This document shows, piece after piece, positions 22,351 through 30,980 of a DNA stretch of 64,000 nt (position 1 is the first letter of the stretch; each line of letters opens with the position of its first letter). Below the pieces are notes generated by a model. That model was not told where the DNA came from. It was given only the letters and a program-made list of their open reading frames with translations, and ran no database searches. The translations under genes were made by a program, and so were the position numbers. The stretch covers positions 19,658 through 83,657 of the forward strand of contig JAJVHS010000042.1 in NCBI GenBank assembly GCA_022072615.1, given 5' to 3'. The stretch comes from Phycisphaerales bacterium. GTDB lineage: Bacteria; Planctomycetota; Phycisphaerae; Phycisphaerales; UBA1924.

Positions 22351-22851
22351 CTACCTCGGCTTGCTGTGCTTGAGCTTGGCGACCTCCCGGGCGGTCATGT
22401 CGCGGACGTACGTCTGGAACTCATCGTGCAGGATCTTCATCTTGCGGTCGTCGATCATTTTCTGGAATGATTCTTCCTGCTCGAGGATCTTCATGCGATC
22501 GACCCAGCTCTGGAAGTAGTCCTCGGGGAGCTGGCGCATGCGGTGGCTGAACCAGACGATCTCGAACACCGAGAGCTGCATCAGGTTGAAGAAGTGCTCG
22601 CGGATCTCGGTGTCGGATTGAAGGTCGACGACGTCGTGCTTGTAGATTCGAGCCAGGGAGGGGTCGTCGACTCGCATGCGCCTGAGCTGCATCTGGAGCT
22701 CAACCAGCTTGGTGAAGTTGGAGACGTAGGCGGCCCTTCGCCAGTGACGGAACTGGAGTCCGGTGTAGAAAAGGCCGGCGGCGAAGACCAGGACCGTGAG
22801 ACCCTGGAGCAGGACTTTGAGCAGTTCGTAGTCTGGCGAGGTCGCGGGCAT
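22351..22851 (-). CDS. Single-pass membrane-anchored protein of unknown function
   Basis: MPATSPDYELLKVLLQGLTVLVFAAGLFYTGLQFRHWRRAAYVSNFTKLVELQMQLRRMRVDDPSLARIYKHD... Confidence 0.65.
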   Translation of the reverse strand: MPATSPDYELLKVLLQGLTVLVFAAGLFYTGLQFRHWRRAAYVSNFTKLVELQMQLRRMRVDDPSLARIYKHDVVDLQSDTEIREHFFNLMQLSVFEIVWFSHRMRQLPEDYFQSWVDRMKILEQEESFQKMIDDRKMKILHDEFQTYVRDMTAREVAKLKHSKPR

Positions 22852-22969: not shown

Positions 22970-24973
22970 ATGGCCAGGAAGAAACGCCCGAGTCGTCGCG
23001 CTTCCCGCGGGACTGTTCCGACCGGTACTCGCGGCAGTCCGCGGCGCGCCGCAAGGCTGGTGGATCACCGCCACGCGCAGCCGGCGAAATCGGCGGCACG
23101 GATCCGCAACCTGCGCGTCTTCGCGTACGACCCGAGCCAGAGCCAGAGCCTGGCGATGTGGCGGACCAACGAGGCGGTCATCTCGCTGCCCGACGAAAAG
23201 CTTGAGCCGGGGCCCGTCGGCGAGTACCTCGAAGTCATCGACATCGATCCTGCGAGCGGGCTGGCCTACGCGCCGATCAACCTCACCGACGCGGACGTCG
23301 CTCGCCGGAACGGGTATGCGCCCAGCGAGATCGATTACCGCTTCCACCAGCAGATGGTGTACGCGGTCGCGATGAACACGATCGTGCACTTCGAGCAGTC
23401 GCTGGGCCGGGACGCGTTCTGGAAGCCGCGGTGGGTGGTCCGGGGCGGCAAGTGGAAACCGGTGTTCGTCCAGCGCCTGCGGATTTACCCGCACGCGCTG
23501 CGCGAGGCCAACGCGTACTACAGCCCCGACAAGGTCTCGCTGCTCTTTGGCTACTTCCAGACTCCGATCGACGACTACACGACCCACTTCCCGGGCGGGA
23601 CCGTTTTCACCTGCCTGTCGCACGACGTCATCGCTCATGAGACCACGCACGCGCTGCTGGACGGCCTGCACCCCAAGTTCTCCGACGAGAGCAACCAGGA
23701 CGTGGCCGCGTTCCACGAGGCGTTCTCCGACATCGTGGCCCTGTTCTCGCGGTTCAGCATGCGGGAGGTGGTGATCCAGGAGATCCGCCGGGCTCGCGGC
23801 AGCCTTGATGCCGAGAACCAGCTCGGCGCGCTGGCGGTGCAGATGGGGACCGCGCTGGGCCAGCGCGGCGCGCTGCGCGACGCCATCGGACGGATCAATC
23901 CGACCACGGGGCGCTGGGAGCGGCGGGACCCCGATCCGAGGGAGCTTGCGGAGACGACCGAACCGCACGCCCGGGGGGCGATCCTGGTCGCCGCGGTGTT
24001 CGACGCGTTCCTCTCCATCTATCGGTCGCGCGTCGCGGATCTTCTGCGCATCGCGACGGGCGGGACCGGGGTGCTGCCGCAGGGCGACCTGCACCCGGAC
24101 CTCGTCGGACGCCTCACGGACGAGGCCGTGAAATCGGCCCGCCATATTCTGCACATGTGCATCCGGGCCCTTGACTACTGCCCGCCGGTCGACATCACGT
24201 TCGGCGAGTACCTGCGGGCGCTGGTGACCGCCGACTACGACATGATGCCGGAGGATGAGCGCAATTACCGCGTGGCGGTGGTTGAGTCCTTCAGCCGCTA
24301 CGGCATCTACCCCGAGGCCTCGCGGTCGCTCCTGGCGGACGCGATCCGATGGGAGGAGCCCGTCTTCGGAGATCTCTTCTCCAAGCTCCTGGGCGGTGTG
24401 AACTTCAGGGACCTGGTTCACGGCACGCTCGGCCAGAGCCGGGCGGAACGAATCCGCGCCACCAGCAAGCTGTGCGCGGAGATCCACGGTCGTCTGTCGA
24501 GTTCCATGTGGGCCGAGCAGGTGCTGTGGCAGGCCGGGCTGCAGATCGGCCCGAAGGCCCCGGGGTCGGTGCGCGTGGGGTCGGGCAACGGTCAGCCGTC
24601 GTTCCAGGTGGACGGGCTGCGGCCGGCGCGGCGCCTGGGGCACCGCGGATCGGAGACCGTGGACATCGTGCTCGAGATCACGCAAACGCGAGACGGATAC
24701 CTGGACCCCGACGTGCAGCGCAAGGCGGACCAGCGTCGGCCCGGGCCGACCCGTCCGAAGGATCTGCCCCCGCCCGACTTCACGTTCCGCGGTGGGTGCA
24801 CGCTGTTCATCAACCCGGACGAGAGAAACATCCGGTTCTGCATCGCCAAGAACATCATGAGCGACCCGCGGCTTGAACGCACCCGCCAGCACTGGCTCAA
24901 GGCCGGGCCCATGGGGGCCGCCTTCTACGGCGCCCGGTCCGGCGAACCCTTCGCGGCGCTTCACTGCCACTGA
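22970..24973 (+). CDS. Gluzincin-like zinc metallopeptidase
   Basis: VIAHETTHALLDGLHPKFSDESNQDVAAFHEAFSDIVALFSRF (HExxH + distal Glu-rich helix), from ATG at 22970. Confidence 0.75.
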   Translation: MARKKRPSRRASRGTVPTGTRGSPRRAARLVDHRHAQPAKSAARIRNLRVFAYDPSQSQSLAMWRTNEAVISLPDEKLEPGPVGEYLEVIDIDPASGLAYAPINLTDADVARRNGYAPSEIDYRFHQQMVYAVAMNTIVHFEQSLGRDAFWKPRWVVRGGKWKPVFVQRLRIYPHALREANAYYSPDKVSLLFGYFQTPIDDYTTHFPGGTVFTCLSHDVIAHETTHALLDGLHPKFSDESNQDVAAFHEAFSDIVALFSRFSMREVVIQEIRRARGSLDAENQLGALAVQMGTALGQRGALRDAIGRINPTTGRWERRDPDPRELAETTEPHARGAILVAAVFDAFLSIYRSRVADLLRIATGGTGVLPQGDLHPDLVGRLTDEAVKSARHILHMCIRALDYCPPVDITFGEYLRALVTADYDMMPEDERNYRVAVVESFSRYGIYPEASRSLLADAIRWEEPVFGDLFSKLLGGVNFRDLVHGTLGQSRAERIRATSKLCAEIHGRLSSSMWAEQVLWQAGLQIGPKAPGSVRVGSGNGQPSFQVDGLRPARRLGHRGSETVDIVLEITQTRDGYLDPDVQRKADQRRPGPTRPKDLPPPDFTFRGGCTLFINPDERNIRFCIAKNIMSDPRLERTRQHWLKAGPMGAAFYGARSGEPFAALHCH

Positions 24974-25001
24974 CCAACAACCCCGGCGACGAGTACCACG
25001 C

Positions 25002-26519
25002 ATGGCAAAGCGACCGACCACCTCGACCGACACGCCGGCAGCGCTCAAGGGCCCGCGGGCGACCGTCCGGATGTACCGGGCCGGGTTCGGCGACTGCTTC
25101 CTGGTGAGCATCGAATCACCGTCGCAGCGGCCGTTTCACATGCTGATCGACTGCGGGATATGGCAGTCGGACCGCGCCAACGTGGACCGGCTGGTGAAGG
25201 CCGTCGAGCACGTCAAGGAAGTGACGCGAGGGTTCCTCGACGTGCTGGTCGTCACGCACGAGCACAAGGACCACGTCTCGGGCTTCGGCAAGACGCAGGC
25301 CGCCGGCACGTTCGAGACCCTGGACATCGGCGAGGTGTGGCTGGCGTGGACGGAGAACATGTCCGACCGCCTGGCTCGCCGGCTTCGCCGGTCGTACATG
25401 GAGACTCACAAGAAGCTGACGCGGGCGCTGAAGGGGTTCCGGGCATCGGCGATGGGCATCGACGCCAAGCAGGAGCGCTCGCGGCTGTCACGGCTGGTCG
25501 ACCAGATCGAGGAACTGCTGGGGTGCTCGGCGCTCTCCGAGCGTGCCATGGGCGCGGCACCCGAAGGCGTGCGGTCGCTCGCGGGCATGGACTGGGTGAA
25601 GCAACTGGGCACCCGGACGCCGGCGGTGCCGATCCGCACGTGGAAGCCGGGGCAATCGATCCCGCTTCCGCTTGGCCGGGCGCTGGTGCTCGGGCCGCCG
25701 CGCAGGGAGGCGAGCCTTCGCAAGGAGGAAGCCAACGCCGCGGAGAAGCGCGAGGACGAGGTTTACACGCAGAAGCGGTTGGGCTTCTCCGGATGGGCGC
25801 TGGGCGCCGATTCGCTGCTGTCGGCGCTCGAGGCGCACTCGTCGCCGGATGCGTGGGACCGGGGGATGCCCTTCCGCAACAACGCGCAGGAGGGCGTCTT
25901 CCGCCTGGATCACGCGAGGAACCACCGGTTCTTCCGCGAACGCTACTTCGAGAGCCGGCAGGACTCGCTCGACGGCGGGCAGTGGCGGAGAATCGACGGC
26001 GACTGGCTGGGGTCGGCGGCGGAGATGGCGCTCCGAATGCAGGAGTACACGAACAACACGAGTCTTGTCCTCGCGCTGGAACTGGGGCCGTCGAAGAAGG
26101 TGCTGCTCTTCCCCGGCGACGCGCAGTTCGGCAACTGGGCGTCGTGGGACGACGTGAAGTTCGAGGACGACCCCGATCTCACGGCGGAGGACCTGCTGCG
26201 CCGGACCGTGCTGTACAAGGTCGGGCATCACGGGAGCCACAACGCGACACTGCGCAAGCGCGGGCTGGAGCGCATGACGTCGCACGAACTGACGGCGATG
26301 GTGCCGGTGGACGCGGAATTCGTGAAGGCCCAGAAATGGAACATGCCGTTTCCCCCGATGTTCGCCGATCTCGTGAAACGGACGTACGGCCGCGTGCTCC
26401 GATCGGACCACGGCCGGGGCGAGAGGCCCGCGAGCGTTTCCGAGGCAGAATGGGCCGCGTTCATCGGGAACACGTCGGTCGAAGACGATCGCTACGTCGA
26501 GTGCCGGATCGACCTCTAG
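25002..26519 (+). CDS. MBL-fold (ComEC/Rec2-like) hydrolase
   Basis: VRMYRAGFGDCFLVSIES...MLIDCGIW; FLDVLVVTHEHKDHVSGF (HxHxDH); KKVLLFPGDAQFGNWASW; LYKVGHHGSHNAT. Confidence 0.85.
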   Translation: MAKRPTTSTDTPAALKGPRATVRMYRAGFGDCFLVSIESPSQRPFHMLIDCGIWQSDRANVDRLVKAVEHVKEVTRGFLDVLVVTHEHKDHVSGFGKTQAAGTFETLDIGEVWLAWTENMSDRLARRLRRSYMETHKKLTRALKGFRASAMGIDAKQERSRLSRLVDQIEELLGCSALSERAMGAAPEGVRSLAGMDWVKQLGTRTPAVPIRTWKPGQSIPLPLGRALVLGPPRREASLRKEEANAAEKREDEVYTQKRLGFSGWALGADSLLSALEAHSSPDAWDRGMPFRNNAQEGVFRLDHARNHRFFRERYFESRQDSLDGGQWRRIDGDWLGSAAEMALRMQEYTNNTSLVLALELGPSKKVLLFPGDAQFGNWASWDDVKFEDDPDLTAEDLLRRTVLYKVGHHGSHNATLRKRGLERMTSHELTAMVPVDAEFVKAQKWNMPFPPMFADLVKRTYGRVLRSDHGRGERPASVSEAEWAAFIGNTSVEDDRYVECRIDL

Positions 26520-26585
26520 ACATGCTCATGACCGGGGCAAGGGGTTCTACGATCGGGCTGGACCACCGACAGGGATCGCCGCGCG

Positions 26586-29048
26586 ATGGCAACACCGGCT
26601 CACGCTGATTTCGAGAAACTCGGGTCGTTCTACCTGGGCCGCCGTTACGACCTCGAGCGCCGCCAGCGGACGGGCGACCCGGTGCTGTACGACTCGCGCG
26701 ACCTGGTCACGCACGCCGTCTGCGTCGGGATGACCGGCAGCGGCAAGACAGGGCTGTGCGTCGGCCTGCTCGAGGAAGCGGCCATCGACGGCATCCCCGC
26801 GATCATCATCGACCCCAAGGGCGATCTGGGGAACATGCTGCTCACGTTCGAGCAGCTGCGGCCCGAGGATTTCCGCCCGTGGATCAACACCGACGACGCG
26901 CGCCGGGCCGGCGTGACCGCGGACGAGTTCGCGGCGGCGCAGTCGGCGAGCTGGCGCGCCGGGCTCGCCGAATGGGGGCAGGACGCGTCGCGGATCGGCC
27001 GGCTGCGGTCGTCGGCGGAGTGGTCGATCTACACCCCCGGGTCGAGCGCGGGCGAGGCGGTGAGCGTGCTGCGCTCGTTCGATGCGCCGCCCGCGGCGCT
27101 CCTGGACGACGCCGAGCTGCTCCAGGAGCGGGTCTCGACGACGGTCACGGGGCTGCTGGGGCTGGTCGGGATCACCGCCGACCCGGTGCAGAGCCGCGAG
27201 CACATCCTGATCTCGACGATCCTCGCGCACGCGTGGTCGCGGGGTGAATCGCCGGATCTCTCGACGCTCATCCGCCGCGTGCAGCAGCCGCCGGTGCCCC
27301 GCATCGGCGTGATGGACGTGGACACGTTCTTCCCGGCCGAGCAGCGGTTCGGGCTGGCGCTGCAGATCAACAACCTGATCGCGGCGCCGGGATTCTCACG
27401 ATGGATGGACGGCACCCCGCTGGATCCCGCGAAGCTCCTGTACACGCAGGACGGTCGGCCCCGGCACGCCATCTTCTCGATTTCTCACCTCTCGGACAGC
27501 GAGCGGATGTTCTTCGTTTCGCTCCTGCTCAACCAGGTGCTCGGCTGGGTGCGGGCGCAGCCGGGAACCACCAGCCTGCGGGCGCTGGTGTACATGGACG
27601 AGATCGCGGGCTATTTCCCGCCGGTCGCGCAGCCGCCGAGCAAGCGCCCGCTGCTGACGCTGATGAAGCAGGCCCGCGCGCAGGGCGTCGGCGTGGTGCT
27701 CGCGACGCAGAACCCGGTGGACCTCGACTACAAGGGGCTTTCGAACGCGGGGACCTGGTTCATCGGCCGGTTGCAGACCGACCGGGACAAGCAGCGGGTG
27801 CTCGACGGGCTGGAGGGGGCGTCGCCCGCGGGGATGGATCGGGCGGCGATGGACCGCGTGCTCTCGTCCCTGACGTCTCGGGTCTTCCTGATGCACAACG
27901 TCCACGACGCCGAGCCGACCGTGTTCCAGGCCCGTTGGACGCTGTCGTATCTTCGCGGTCCGATGACGCGCGACGAGATCCGGGCCGTCTCGGCGGCGCA
28001 GCGCAAGGCTGCGACCACGCCGGACACCAGGCCCGACGCCGCATCGCCAACCCGACCCAAGAAGCCTTTCGCTGAAGCGGACACGTCACCCATCGGCCCG
28101 AGGCCCCTGATCGCGGAGGCCGTGCCCGAGTTCTTCGTCGCGGAATCCGACGGCGCGGGCGCGGTGTACACGCCGGTGATCGCGGGCTTTGCCCGGGTGC
28201 ATTACACGGACGCGAAGGCAAAGATCGATGTCGATGAGGCGGTGTCCGTCGCCGCGCCGCTCTCGACCGGGCCGATCGCCCTCGACTGGACCCGGGCCGT
28301 CGCGTGCGGGTTCTCGATGGACGAGTTGTCGAAGCAGCCCGCGGCCGATGCGAAGTTCCACCAACTGCCGGCGGAGGCGTCGAAGGCGCGTTCGTATGAG
28401 ACGTGGGGCAAGTCGCTGGCGACGTACCTGCAGCGAACTCGACCTTTGACACTGATGCGGTGCTCGGCGCTGGGGGTGGTCTCGCGTCGGGGCGAGAGCG
28501 AGGCGGAGTTCCAGGCGCGGGTGCGCCAGGCCGCGCGCGAGGAACGGGACAGGCGCGTCGAGCAGATCCGAGCCAAGTTCGGAGCCCGGGTCAGGATGCT
28601 CCAGGAACGCGTCCGCAAGGCCGAGCAGGTGGTCGATGTGCAGAAGGAGCAGGCGGCGACGGCGAGCGTCTCGGGAGTGCTCTCCATCGGATCGGCGCTG
28701 CTCGGCGCGTTCCTTGGACGCAAGCCGGTGAGCAGTTCAACGGTCGGCCGGGCGGCGACGGCGGCGCGGGGGGCGGGTCGAGCGATGAAGGAGAAATCGG
28801 ACGTCGGCCGGGCGATGGAGGATCTGGCGACGGCGCGGGAGGAACTGAACCGGGTCGAGGAGGAGCTTTCGCAGCAGGTGCAGTCGATCGCCGGTGAGGT
28901 TGAAGCGCAGATGCTCGACGTTGATCGCGTTGAGATCAAGCCCAAGAGAGGGTCCGTGGCGGTGCAGGCGGTGGTGCTGGTGTGGGTGCCGGGCCCGGCG
29001 GAGGTATCATCGTCTGAAGGTGCTGCGCCGAGCGGCGGCCCGGGATGA
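26586..29048 (+). CDS. HerA-like/DUF87-type P-loop ATPase with C-terminal coiled coil
   Basis: DLVTHAVCVGMTGSGKTGLCVGLLEEAAIDGIPAIIIDPKGDLGNMLL (Walker A); LRALVYMDEIAGYFPPVAQPPSKRPLLTLMKQARAQGVGVVLATQNPVDLDYKGLSNAGTWFIGRLQTDRDKQRVLDGL. Confidence 0.85.
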   Translation: MATPAHADFEKLGSFYLGRRYDLERRQRTGDPVLYDSRDLVTHAVCVGMTGSGKTGLCVGLLEEAAIDGIPAIIIDPKGDLGNMLLTFEQLRPEDFRPWINTDDARRAGVTADEFAAAQSASWRAGLAEWGQDASRIGRLRSSAEWSIYTPGSSAGEAVSVLRSFDAPPAALLDDAELLQERVSTTVTGLLGLVGITADPVQSREHILISTILAHAWSRGESPDLSTLIRRVQQPPVPRIGVMDVDTFFPAEQRFGLALQINNLIAAPGFSRWMDGTPLDPAKLLYTQDGRPRHAIFSISHLSDSERMFFVSLLLNQVLGWVRAQPGTTSLRALVYMDEIAGYFPPVAQPPSKRPLLTLMKQARAQGVGVVLATQNPVDLDYKGLSNAGTWFIGRLQTDRDKQRVLDGLEGASPAGMDRAAMDRVLSSLTSRVFLMHNVHDAEPTVFQARWTLSYLRGPMTRDEIRAVSAAQRKAATTPDTRPDAASPTRPKKPFAEADTSPIGPRPLIAEAVPEFFVAESDGAGAVYTPVIAGFARVHYTDAKAKIDVDEAVSVAAPLSTGPIALDWTRAVACGFSMDELSKQPAADAKFHQLPAEASKARSYETWGKSLATYLQRTRPLTLMRCSALGVVSRRGESEAEFQARVRQAAREERDRRVEQIRAKFGARVRMLQERVRKAEQVVDVQKEQAATASVSGVLSIGSALLGAFLGRKPVSSSTVGRAATAARGAGRAMKEKSDVGRAMEDLATAREELNRVEEELSQQVQSIAGEVEAQMLDVDRVEIKPKRGSVAVQAVVLVWVPGPAEVSSSEGAAPSGGPG

Positions 29049-29916: not shown

Positions 29917-30377
29917 CCGCGACCAGACGGGACGCGGCGGGAAACCTGAGCCGGGCACGCGCACGCCACGCTCGCGCGGCGAGCCTGGTTCTTTCGCGTG
30001 CGCGTCGGACCCTCATGGGCGGCTCCGGGCGGACGCCACCTGCTCGCGGCGCGCGCTCGTCTCTCGCATCCAGCCCGACCGGCGTGTGCGACGCCGCCGC
30101 CCGGAGGGTCCTCCCGAATCTGACCGTACCGGGCGACCTCGCCCCGGACGGGCATTGACCCTTCCAGAGACCTGATCTTCCGGCGGGTCCGCGCCGGGAG
30201 GGCCGCGAACACGGGTTTTCTAGGACTCAACGCAACCCGGTTCAACGGATCTCCGTATCTGCTTTCTCAAGAGCCGGGCCCGCATTCGCGGAACCCAGTC
30301 GCGTCGGCATGGGGTCCCCCGGCCATTCCGTCCGCATCACGGGGTGGCGGATCAAGTCGCAGGAGAGAGTGATCATC

Positions 30378-30980
30378 ATGAATCAGAAGCACTTCGCGTC
30401 AGCGCTGTTCGTCCTGGTTGCAGTGGCCGGCGCGGCGGCGGCCGAGTTCACCGTCAACGGCGGGTTCGAAGCCGGCGATCTTTCCGGCTGGACGTCGTTC
30501 CCCACGACCAACTCGACCTTCAAGCTCACCAACGACGCGAACAGCGGCAGCTTCGCGGCGGAAGTGTTCAACAACGACGTCGCCGCCGCGGCCGTCGTCA
30601 AGCAGGCCAACATCGGCAAGGGGATCATCAATGCCGGCGATGAGATCACGATCTCGTTCGCCGTCAAGGGCAGCACGGCCAACGGCGGCGTCGCCTTCGC
30701 GGAGTTCTTCTCCGAGATCGACGGCGGCGGCGTGTCCAAGTCGGAGATTCTCGGCGGCGGGCCGCTCCCCCTGACCGGTTCGTACCAGACCTTCACCTTC
30801 CTGACGACGGCCGGCCCTGATGTCTCCGGCGGCGTCACGCTGCAGTTCGCCGCCGTCACCGGCGCCGACGTCGGCAGCGTCACGGTGCTGTTCATCGACG
30901 ACGCATCGGTGGTTCCGGGCCCCGGCGCGCTGGCGCTGCTCGGCCTGGGCGGCCTTGCCTCGCTCCGTCGCCGCCGCTGA
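30378..30980 (+). CDS. Secreted protein with PEP-CTERM sorting signal
   Basis: Signal peptide MNQKHFASALFVLVAVAGAAAAE; FTVNGGFEAGDLSGWTSF; C-term VVPGPGALALLGLGGLASLRRRR. Confidence 0.85.
   Translation: MNQKHFASALFVLVAVAGAAAAEFTVNGGFEAGDLSGWTSFPTTNSTFKLTNDANSGSFAAEVFNNDVAAAAVVKQANIGKGIINAGDEITISFAVKGSTANGGVAFAEFFSEIDGGGVSKSEILGGGPLPLTGSYQTFTFLTTAGPDVSGGVTLQFAAVTGADVGSVTVLFIDDASVVPGPGALALLGLGGLASLRRRR

What the first reader, a model, noticed from the sequence alone, without database searches (positions are those of the whole stretch)
22970..29048. Three-gene cassette: gluzincin metallopeptidase + MBL-fold hydrolase + HerA-like ATPase
Seen: three co-directional genes with short gaps (28 and 66 bp) encode a HExxH peptidase, an HxHxDH MBL hydrolase and a Walker A/B ATPase whose C-terminus is a long coiled coil. 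None has an obvious housekeeping role. Established: HerA-like ATPases, MBL effectors and peptidases recur separately in prokaryotic conflict and DNA-processing systems. Inference: this could be a multicomponent defence or DNA/protein-processing system in which the ATPase drives a peptidase/hydrolase output.
Basis: partly seen in the sequence, partly recalled or inferred. Interest (0 to 1): 0.8.

Follow-up and report, generated by a model that had tools for sequence, protein, structure and literature searches.

The report
Metalloprotease–nuclease pair beside unrelated ATPase
Two of the three genes (a thermolysin-like protease and a DNA-cutting-type enzyme that looks locked by two loops) travel together across at least five bacterial phyla, often in anti-virus gene clusters, while the third gene, an ATPase, is an unrelated neighbour; the pair looks like a protease-armed suicide nuclease using a protease class not yet described for this job in the papers I could search.

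Summary
The three ORFs and both gaps are real. The three-gene system is not supported. The HerA-like ATPase is a separate, widespread family: none of 80 relatives has the other two genes within 8 kb, and both same-genus genomes lack it. The first two genes are a true unit. In 35 of 35 relatives with readable downstream DNA (Planctomycetota, Pseudomonadota, Bacteroidota, Deinococcota, Acidobacteriota), the peptidase gene is followed by the MBL gene, and their distances co-vary (r=0.82). The peptidase models as an M4 thermolysin-like fold with no visible signal peptide. The MBL models as the ComEC nuclease domain with two large, partly disordered insertions, and its family matches LmuA, Avs1a and DRT-MBL defence profiles. 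A third partner varies: patatin phospholipase (14 loci), an N-terminal subtilase fusion (6), an LmuB-like SMC ATPase (2), or none. Several plasmid copies lie in defence islands (Hachiman, CBASS, SIR2). Best explanation: a metallopeptidase-activated gated pro-nuclease, a variant of the trypsin– and caspase–nuclease pairs (PMC12799240). Cleavage, DNase activity and defence are inferred. That paper's supplement, which may already list this clade, could not be read.

The parts
22970..24973 (+). M4 (thermolysin)-like metallopeptidase, 667 aa, no visible signal peptide; HETTH at 23636-23650, third-ligand motif HEAFSD at 23714-23731; C-terminal domain of unknown function
   Evidence: ORF; HExxH + HE(A/G/S)xxD kept in the family; AF2 pTM 0.85, the 10 fold matches with E<0.001 are all M4 enzymes
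25002..26519 (+). ComEC-type MBL, predicted gated pro-nuclease, 505 aa; HxHxDH at 25257-25274; HHGS at 26226-26237
   Evidence: AF2 pTM 0.83; best solved match is the ComEC MBL domain 9ic4, E 3e-10; all 32 family members match PADLOC LmuA, 27 RTasMBL, 20 Avs1a
25359..25616 (+). Insertion 1 of the MBL (about residues 120-205), helical, with a disordered loop at 175-190; family motif (L)xFxG in the loop
   Evidence: AF2 confidence; column counts F 25/32, G 29/32
25719..25979 (+). Insertion 2 of the MBL (about residues 240-326), mostly low confidence; near-invariant Pro290-Phe291 in the disordered part
   Evidence: AF2 confidence; P 31/32, F 31/32
26586..29048 (+). HerA/FtsK-like ATPase with C-terminal coiled coil; judged NOT part of the unit (bystander)
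   Evidence: Pfam DUF87/HerA_C; 80 relatives without the pair; absent in both sister species

Best explanation
The functional unit is the two-gene pair at 22970-26519: a cytosolic M4-like zinc metallopeptidase followed by a ComEC-type MBL nuclease whose active site is predicted to be gated by two insertions. By analogy with the proven trypsin- and caspase-nuclease pairs, a trigger (probably infection) activates the peptidase. The peptidase then cuts the insertions (candidate sites: the conserved Pro-Phe in insertion 2 and the F-x-G loop in insertion 1). The opened nuclease degrades DNA and stops or kills the infected cell. Other loci add a patatin lipase, an N-terminal subtilase or an SMC ATPase, presumably extra effectors, upstream proteases or sensors. 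The HerA-like ATPase is a separate gene that lies between the pair and superoxide dismutase in this species. Shown: genuine genes, conserved pairing, co-inheritance, predicted folds, insertions, defence-island context of several copies. Inferred: peptidase-to-nuclease activation, DNase activity, phage defence.
For: Peptidase next to MBL in 35/35 relatives with readable downstream DNA, five phyla. Mirror-tree r=0.82, 0 of 5000 permutations reach it. MBL family matches LmuA 32/32, RTasMBL 27/32, Avs1a 20/32 in PADLOC and Avs1a 28/32, 6A-MBL 21/32 in NCBIfam. AF2 and Foldseek: ComEC MBL domain plus two insertions with disordered loops; the profile match to ComEC leaves 268 profile positions where ComEC has 91 residues. 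Conserved PF and FxG in those low-confidence loops. Peptidase fold M4. Defence neighbours: Hachiman HamA2/HamB2 directly downstream in Agrobacterium and DUF1837 + helicase in Rhizobium, CBASS, SIR2, LmuB-like SMC ATPase. The pair has diverged faster than its chromosomal flanks in one genus (51-53% and 40-42% versus 63-95%). Precedent mechanism: PMC12799240.
Against: No biochemistry or phage data. The window copy lies among housekeeping genes, not in a defence island. The window protein has C175/A177 where the family has F/G, so the insertion-1 motif is not universal. Nuclease activity is inferred from fold only, and active-site occlusion was not measured (no coordinates available). The M4 call is structural; sequence profiles give only E about 0.25-0.5 to thermolysin and neutral protease. 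Defence-island context was read from annotated records without a matched control. No sensor is evident in two-gene copies.
Confidence: 0.6

Rival explanations
1. Three-gene system: in this species the HerA-like ATPase was recruited beside the pair as sensor or motor and is co-transcribed with it, comparable to NTPase partners in Lamassu, AVAST and Hachiman.
For: Gap of 66 bp, same strand, no promoter-like or terminator-like site found between the genes; two Hymenobacter copies have an LmuB-like SMC ATPase next to the pair.
Against: Family occurs alone in 80 other loci, 0 with either partner within 8 kb and no fixed neighbours; G001 and G002 keep the pair without it; the ATPase-SOD gap is shorter still (31 bp).
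Confidence: 0.12
2. The pair is not a nuclease switch: the peptidase matures or degrades other proteins, and the MBL acts on a small molecule or lipid, with patatin, subtilase and DUF2235 partners marking an offensive or envelope-processing system.
For: Lipase-type partners are common (patatin 14 loci, DUF2235 2); one distant relative has a GDSL lipase beside it; the second-best fold match of the MBL is a phosphorylcholine esterase.
Against: No visible signal peptides; all MBL homologs match defence nuclease profiles; best fold match is ComEC, by almost four orders of magnitude in E-value.
Confidence: 0.2
3. Peptidase and MBL are linked only by inheritance and have independent housekeeping functions.
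For: In one genus the pair sits at one site among housekeeping genes.
Against: Strict pairing across five phyla and plasmids, patchy presence (9 of 298 class genomes for the peptidase, 8 of 298 for the MBL), correlated evolution.
Confidence: 0.05

Closest known systems
Gated pro-nuclease with trypsin-like protease (HamM-HamAB, Avs1a-Avs1b, Lamassu and DRT variants; PMC12799240)
   Same: ComEC-type MBL with two insertions holding disordered loops; adjacent, co-evolving protease gene; matches LmuA/Avs1a/RTasMBL profiles; some copies lie beside Hachiman genes
   Different: Protease is M4-like zinc metallopeptidase (sometimes fused to subtilase), stands alone rather than fused to a sensor, and lies upstream of the nuclease gene; conserved loop residues are PF and FxG, not isoleucines
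Canu (caspase-nuclease, CanABC; PMC12799240)
   Same: Stand-alone protease gene upstream of the gated nuclease gene; variable third gene
   Different: Caspase-like protease with Ig-like fold versus M4-like; no CanB homolog was looked for
M4 peptidases (thermolysin, aureolysin, vibriolysin)
   Same: Fold, HExxH, third-ligand motif resembling NEAxSD
   Different: No visible signal peptide, about 14% identity, long extra C-terminal part, gene pairing with an MBL
HerA/DUF87 ATPases (HerA, MADS8, CedB/CedD)
   Same: P-loop core, weak profile matches
   Different: Own family of about 820 aa with coiled-coil C-terminus, no conserved partner gene found

Membership tests
Protease-activated gated pro-nuclease (nuclease-protease pairs, PMC12799240) | ComEC-type MBL nuclease fold with metal ligands | tested here: met
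   Foldseek best hit ComEC MBL domain 9ic4, E 3e-10; H86, H88, D90, H91, D373, H409, H410 invariant in 32
Protease-activated gated pro-nuclease (nuclease-protease pairs, PMC12799240) | Two insertions with disordered loops relative to ComEC | tested here: met
   Low-confidence segments at 175-190 and within 258-323, inside two insertions; 268 profile positions versus 91 residues in ComEC
Protease-activated gated pro-nuclease (nuclease-protease pairs, PMC12799240) | Insertions block the active site | not testable with these tools
   No coordinates of the model were available to measure occlusion
Protease-activated gated pro-nuclease (nuclease-protease pairs, PMC12799240) | Conserved cleavage residue in each insertion | tested here: inconclusive
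   PF 31/32 in insertion 2; F 25/32 and G 29/32 in insertion 1, but the window copy has C and A there
Protease-activated gated pro-nuclease (nuclease-protease pairs, PMC12799240) | Adjacent co-inherited protease gene | tested here: met
   35/35 loci adjacent; mirror-tree r=0.82
Protease-activated gated pro-nuclease (nuclease-protease pairs, PMC12799240) | Protease is trypsin-like or caspase | tested here: not met
   M4-like fold, HExxH; the paper mentions other protease families without naming them in its main text
Protease-activated gated pro-nuclease (nuclease-protease pairs, PMC12799240) | Proteolysis switches on DNase activity and phage defence | not testable with these tools
   Needs bench work
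Peptidase family M4 | Thermolysin fold, HExxH + third-ligand Glu about 20-25 residues on | tested here: met
   The 10 PDB fold matches with E<0.001 are all M4 enzymes, prob 1.00; HE at 223/224 and HE at 249/250 invariant
Peptidase family M4 | Pfam Peptidase_M4 match | tested here: not met
   Only 1 of 32 members, E 0.007
Lamassu | LmuA effector plus LmuB SMC ATPase in one operon | tested here: not met
   LmuB-like gene only in two Hymenobacter loci; none near the window pair
HerA-NurA or HerA-effector systems | HerA ATPase with a conserved partner gene | tested here: not met
   No gene cluster recurs in more than 12 of the ATPase loci and none at a fixed adjacent position

The most novel reading that the evidence does not exclude
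A third protease class, an intracellular thermolysin-like metallopeptidase that in some loci is chained to a subtilase (a possible two-step cascade), controls gated MBL pro-nucleases and, in about 40% of loci, a patatin lipase: a metalloprotease-run suicide switch spread by plasmids across phyla.
Probability: 0.45. Interest if true: 0.75.

Novelty: new variant of a known kind. Interest (0 to 1): 0.6.

Why it matters
Protease-armed nucleases are a recent theme in bacterial immunity, so far demonstrated with trypsin-like proteases and caspases. A strictly paired M4-like metallopeptidase would extend it to a third catalytic class, the subtilase-fused form raises the idea of a protease cascade, and the recurring patatin suggests that one protease may arm two effectors. 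It also gives a testable role to an unannotated peptidase family found on plasmids of rhizobia and agrobacteria. It further shows that the ATPase, although adjacent, should not be carried into a system model.

Tried and rejected
Three-gene cassette: rejected on synteny. ATPase + MBL link: three ATPase loci have an MBL gene just downstream, but these are beta-CASP RNases, a different branch with no defence-profile match. The DUF6082-like neighbour 22354-22851(-) as a partner: a conserved chromosomal neighbour in the genus, and its relatives in six other genera have no pair beside them. PADLOC on the peptidase, patatins, the subtilase part and DUF2235: no hit. Viral contigs: no close match; phage records: one unverified 9.5-kb gut contig with the pair plus one weak match. 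A count of defence genes among neighbours with a control set was begun and dropped because the home-made gene caller missed annotated genes. Literature for a metallopeptidase-MBL system: nothing found in the held library.

Full report
Observation. The genome is a Phycisphaerales-like planctomycete MAG (inferred from the relatives returned). Pfam gives nothing above threshold for the peptidase, Lactamase_B for the MBL, and DUF87/HerA_C for the ATPase.

The ATPase is a bystander. A scan of one genome per species returned 80 full-length or near full-length ATPase relatives at 46-58% identity from many phyla. None has a peptidase or MBL homolog within 8 kb; 53 of the 80 loci have at least 4.5 kb on both sides. 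Clustering of neighbouring ORFs shows no fixed partner gene. A profile search of nearby ORFs found only three beta-CASP RNases, a different MBL branch. Plasmid records hold only partial, distant ATPase matches. In the window's genus, G001 and G002 carry the DUF6082-like gene, then peptidase, then MBL, but no ATPase. In G002 superoxide dismutase follows the MBL directly; in G001 another gene follows. Of 16 pair-bearing genomes tested, four have the ATPase elsewhere in the genome, so the two features are not strictly exclusive but are not linked.

The pair is a unit. Relatives of the peptidase occur in 9 of 298 genomes of the class, 8 of 399 of Pseudomonadota, 5 of 248 in the Bacteroidota sample and 64 plasmid records. 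In the 35 loci with a clear homolog and DNA downstream, an MBL homolog follows on the same strand in every case (two further contigs of one genome, L127 and L128, look like one pair split by a contig end; the MBL is broken or only partly matched in L135 and L205). Distant peptidase relatives (26-33% identity; L131, L138, L139, L153) lack it, so the broader peptidase family extends beyond the pairing. Distances of peptidase and MBL correlate (r=0.82 over 29 pairs, 0 of 5000 permutations as high). In the one genus the pair is far less conserved (51-53% and 40-42%) than its flanks (63-95%), as expected for arms-race genes or allele replacement.

What the proteins are. The peptidase model (pTM 0.85) matches only M4 enzymes among fold hits with E<0.001 (aureolysin, vibriolysin, thermolysin), and HExxH plus a downstream HE(A/G/S)xxD motif is kept in the family. 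Its N-terminus shows no signal peptide by eye, unlike secreted M4 enzymes. The MBL model (pTM 0.83) matches the ComEC MBL domain best (9ic4, E 3e-10) and holds two insertions with low-confidence loops, at residues 175-190 and within 258-323. By profile alignment, 268 positions stand where ComEC has 91 residues. Inside these poorly conserved loops, Pro290-Phe291 is kept in 31 of 32 and an F-x-G motif in 25 and 29 of 32, though the window copy has C and A there. All 32 MBLs match PADLOC LmuA, 27 RTasMBL and 20 Avs1a; 28 match NCBIfam Avs1a and 21 match 6A-MBL. For the window protein the NCBIfam scores (38 and 33 bits) are far below the equivalog cut-offs (420 and 220), so it is a relative, not a member.

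Variable third partner. Patatin phospholipase is within about 1.5 kb in 14 loci, usually immediately adjacent. A subtilase domain is fused upstream of the peptidase in six. An SMC/Rad50-like ATPase that matches LmuB precedes the pair in two Hymenobacter plasmids. DUF2235 occurs in two. The window copy and its two sister copies have none of these. Several plasmid copies lie beside Hachiman, CBASS, SIR2 or DarT genes; this was read from annotation without a matched control.

Mechanism. [quoted passage not shown] The pair here has the anatomy of such a system with a metallopeptidase. M4 enzymes usually cut before bulky hydrophobic residues (general knowledge), which would fit a conserved Phe in each loop; this is inference. 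Trigger, cleavage, DNase activity and defence are all untested.

Verdict. Ordinary adjacency for the ATPase; a genuine, broadly distributed peptidase-MBL pair that is probably a new variant of the nuclease-protease immune modules. I could not read that paper's supplement, so priority for this clade is uncertain.

Noticed in passing
L106:6556-12345 and L156:6589-12333 (Hymenobacter plasmids): LmuB-like SMC ATPase + peptidase + MBL in one apparent operon, a possible metallopeptidase version of Lamassu.
   Followed up: partly
L107:7809-16081, L155:7836-16181: Patatin + peptidase + MBL directly followed by Hachiman genes (HamA2/HamB2 by PADLOC in L107; DUF1837 + helicase by annotation in L155), about 115-130 bp apart.
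   Followed up: partly
L108, L110, L133, L134, L159, L162: Subtilase (S8) domain fused N-terminally to the M4-like peptidase, giving about 1200-aa two-protease chains.
   Followed up: partly
window 26586-29048 and L007-L086: The ATPase is itself an uncharacterised, strongly conserved (about 50% across phyla), patchy stand-alone HerA-like family with a coiled-coil C-terminus and no fixed partner.
   Followed up: partly
L008, L009, L049 just downstream of the ATPase: Beta-CASP RNase genes follow the ATPase in three planctomycete loci.
   Followed up: yes
L131, L138, L139, L153: Distant relatives of the peptidase without MBL; neighbours include a GDSL lipase (L131) and a tyrosinase-domain protein (L153).
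   Followed up: no
L154 (MT836994.1, human gut, unverified phage contig): Carries the peptidase-MBL pair with peptidoglycan-binding-type genes upstream; may be bacterial DNA.
   Followed up: no
window 30309-30980: Secreted protein with a C-terminal sorting-type end (VPGPGALALLGLGGLASLRRRR), PEP-CTERM-like.
   Followed up: no
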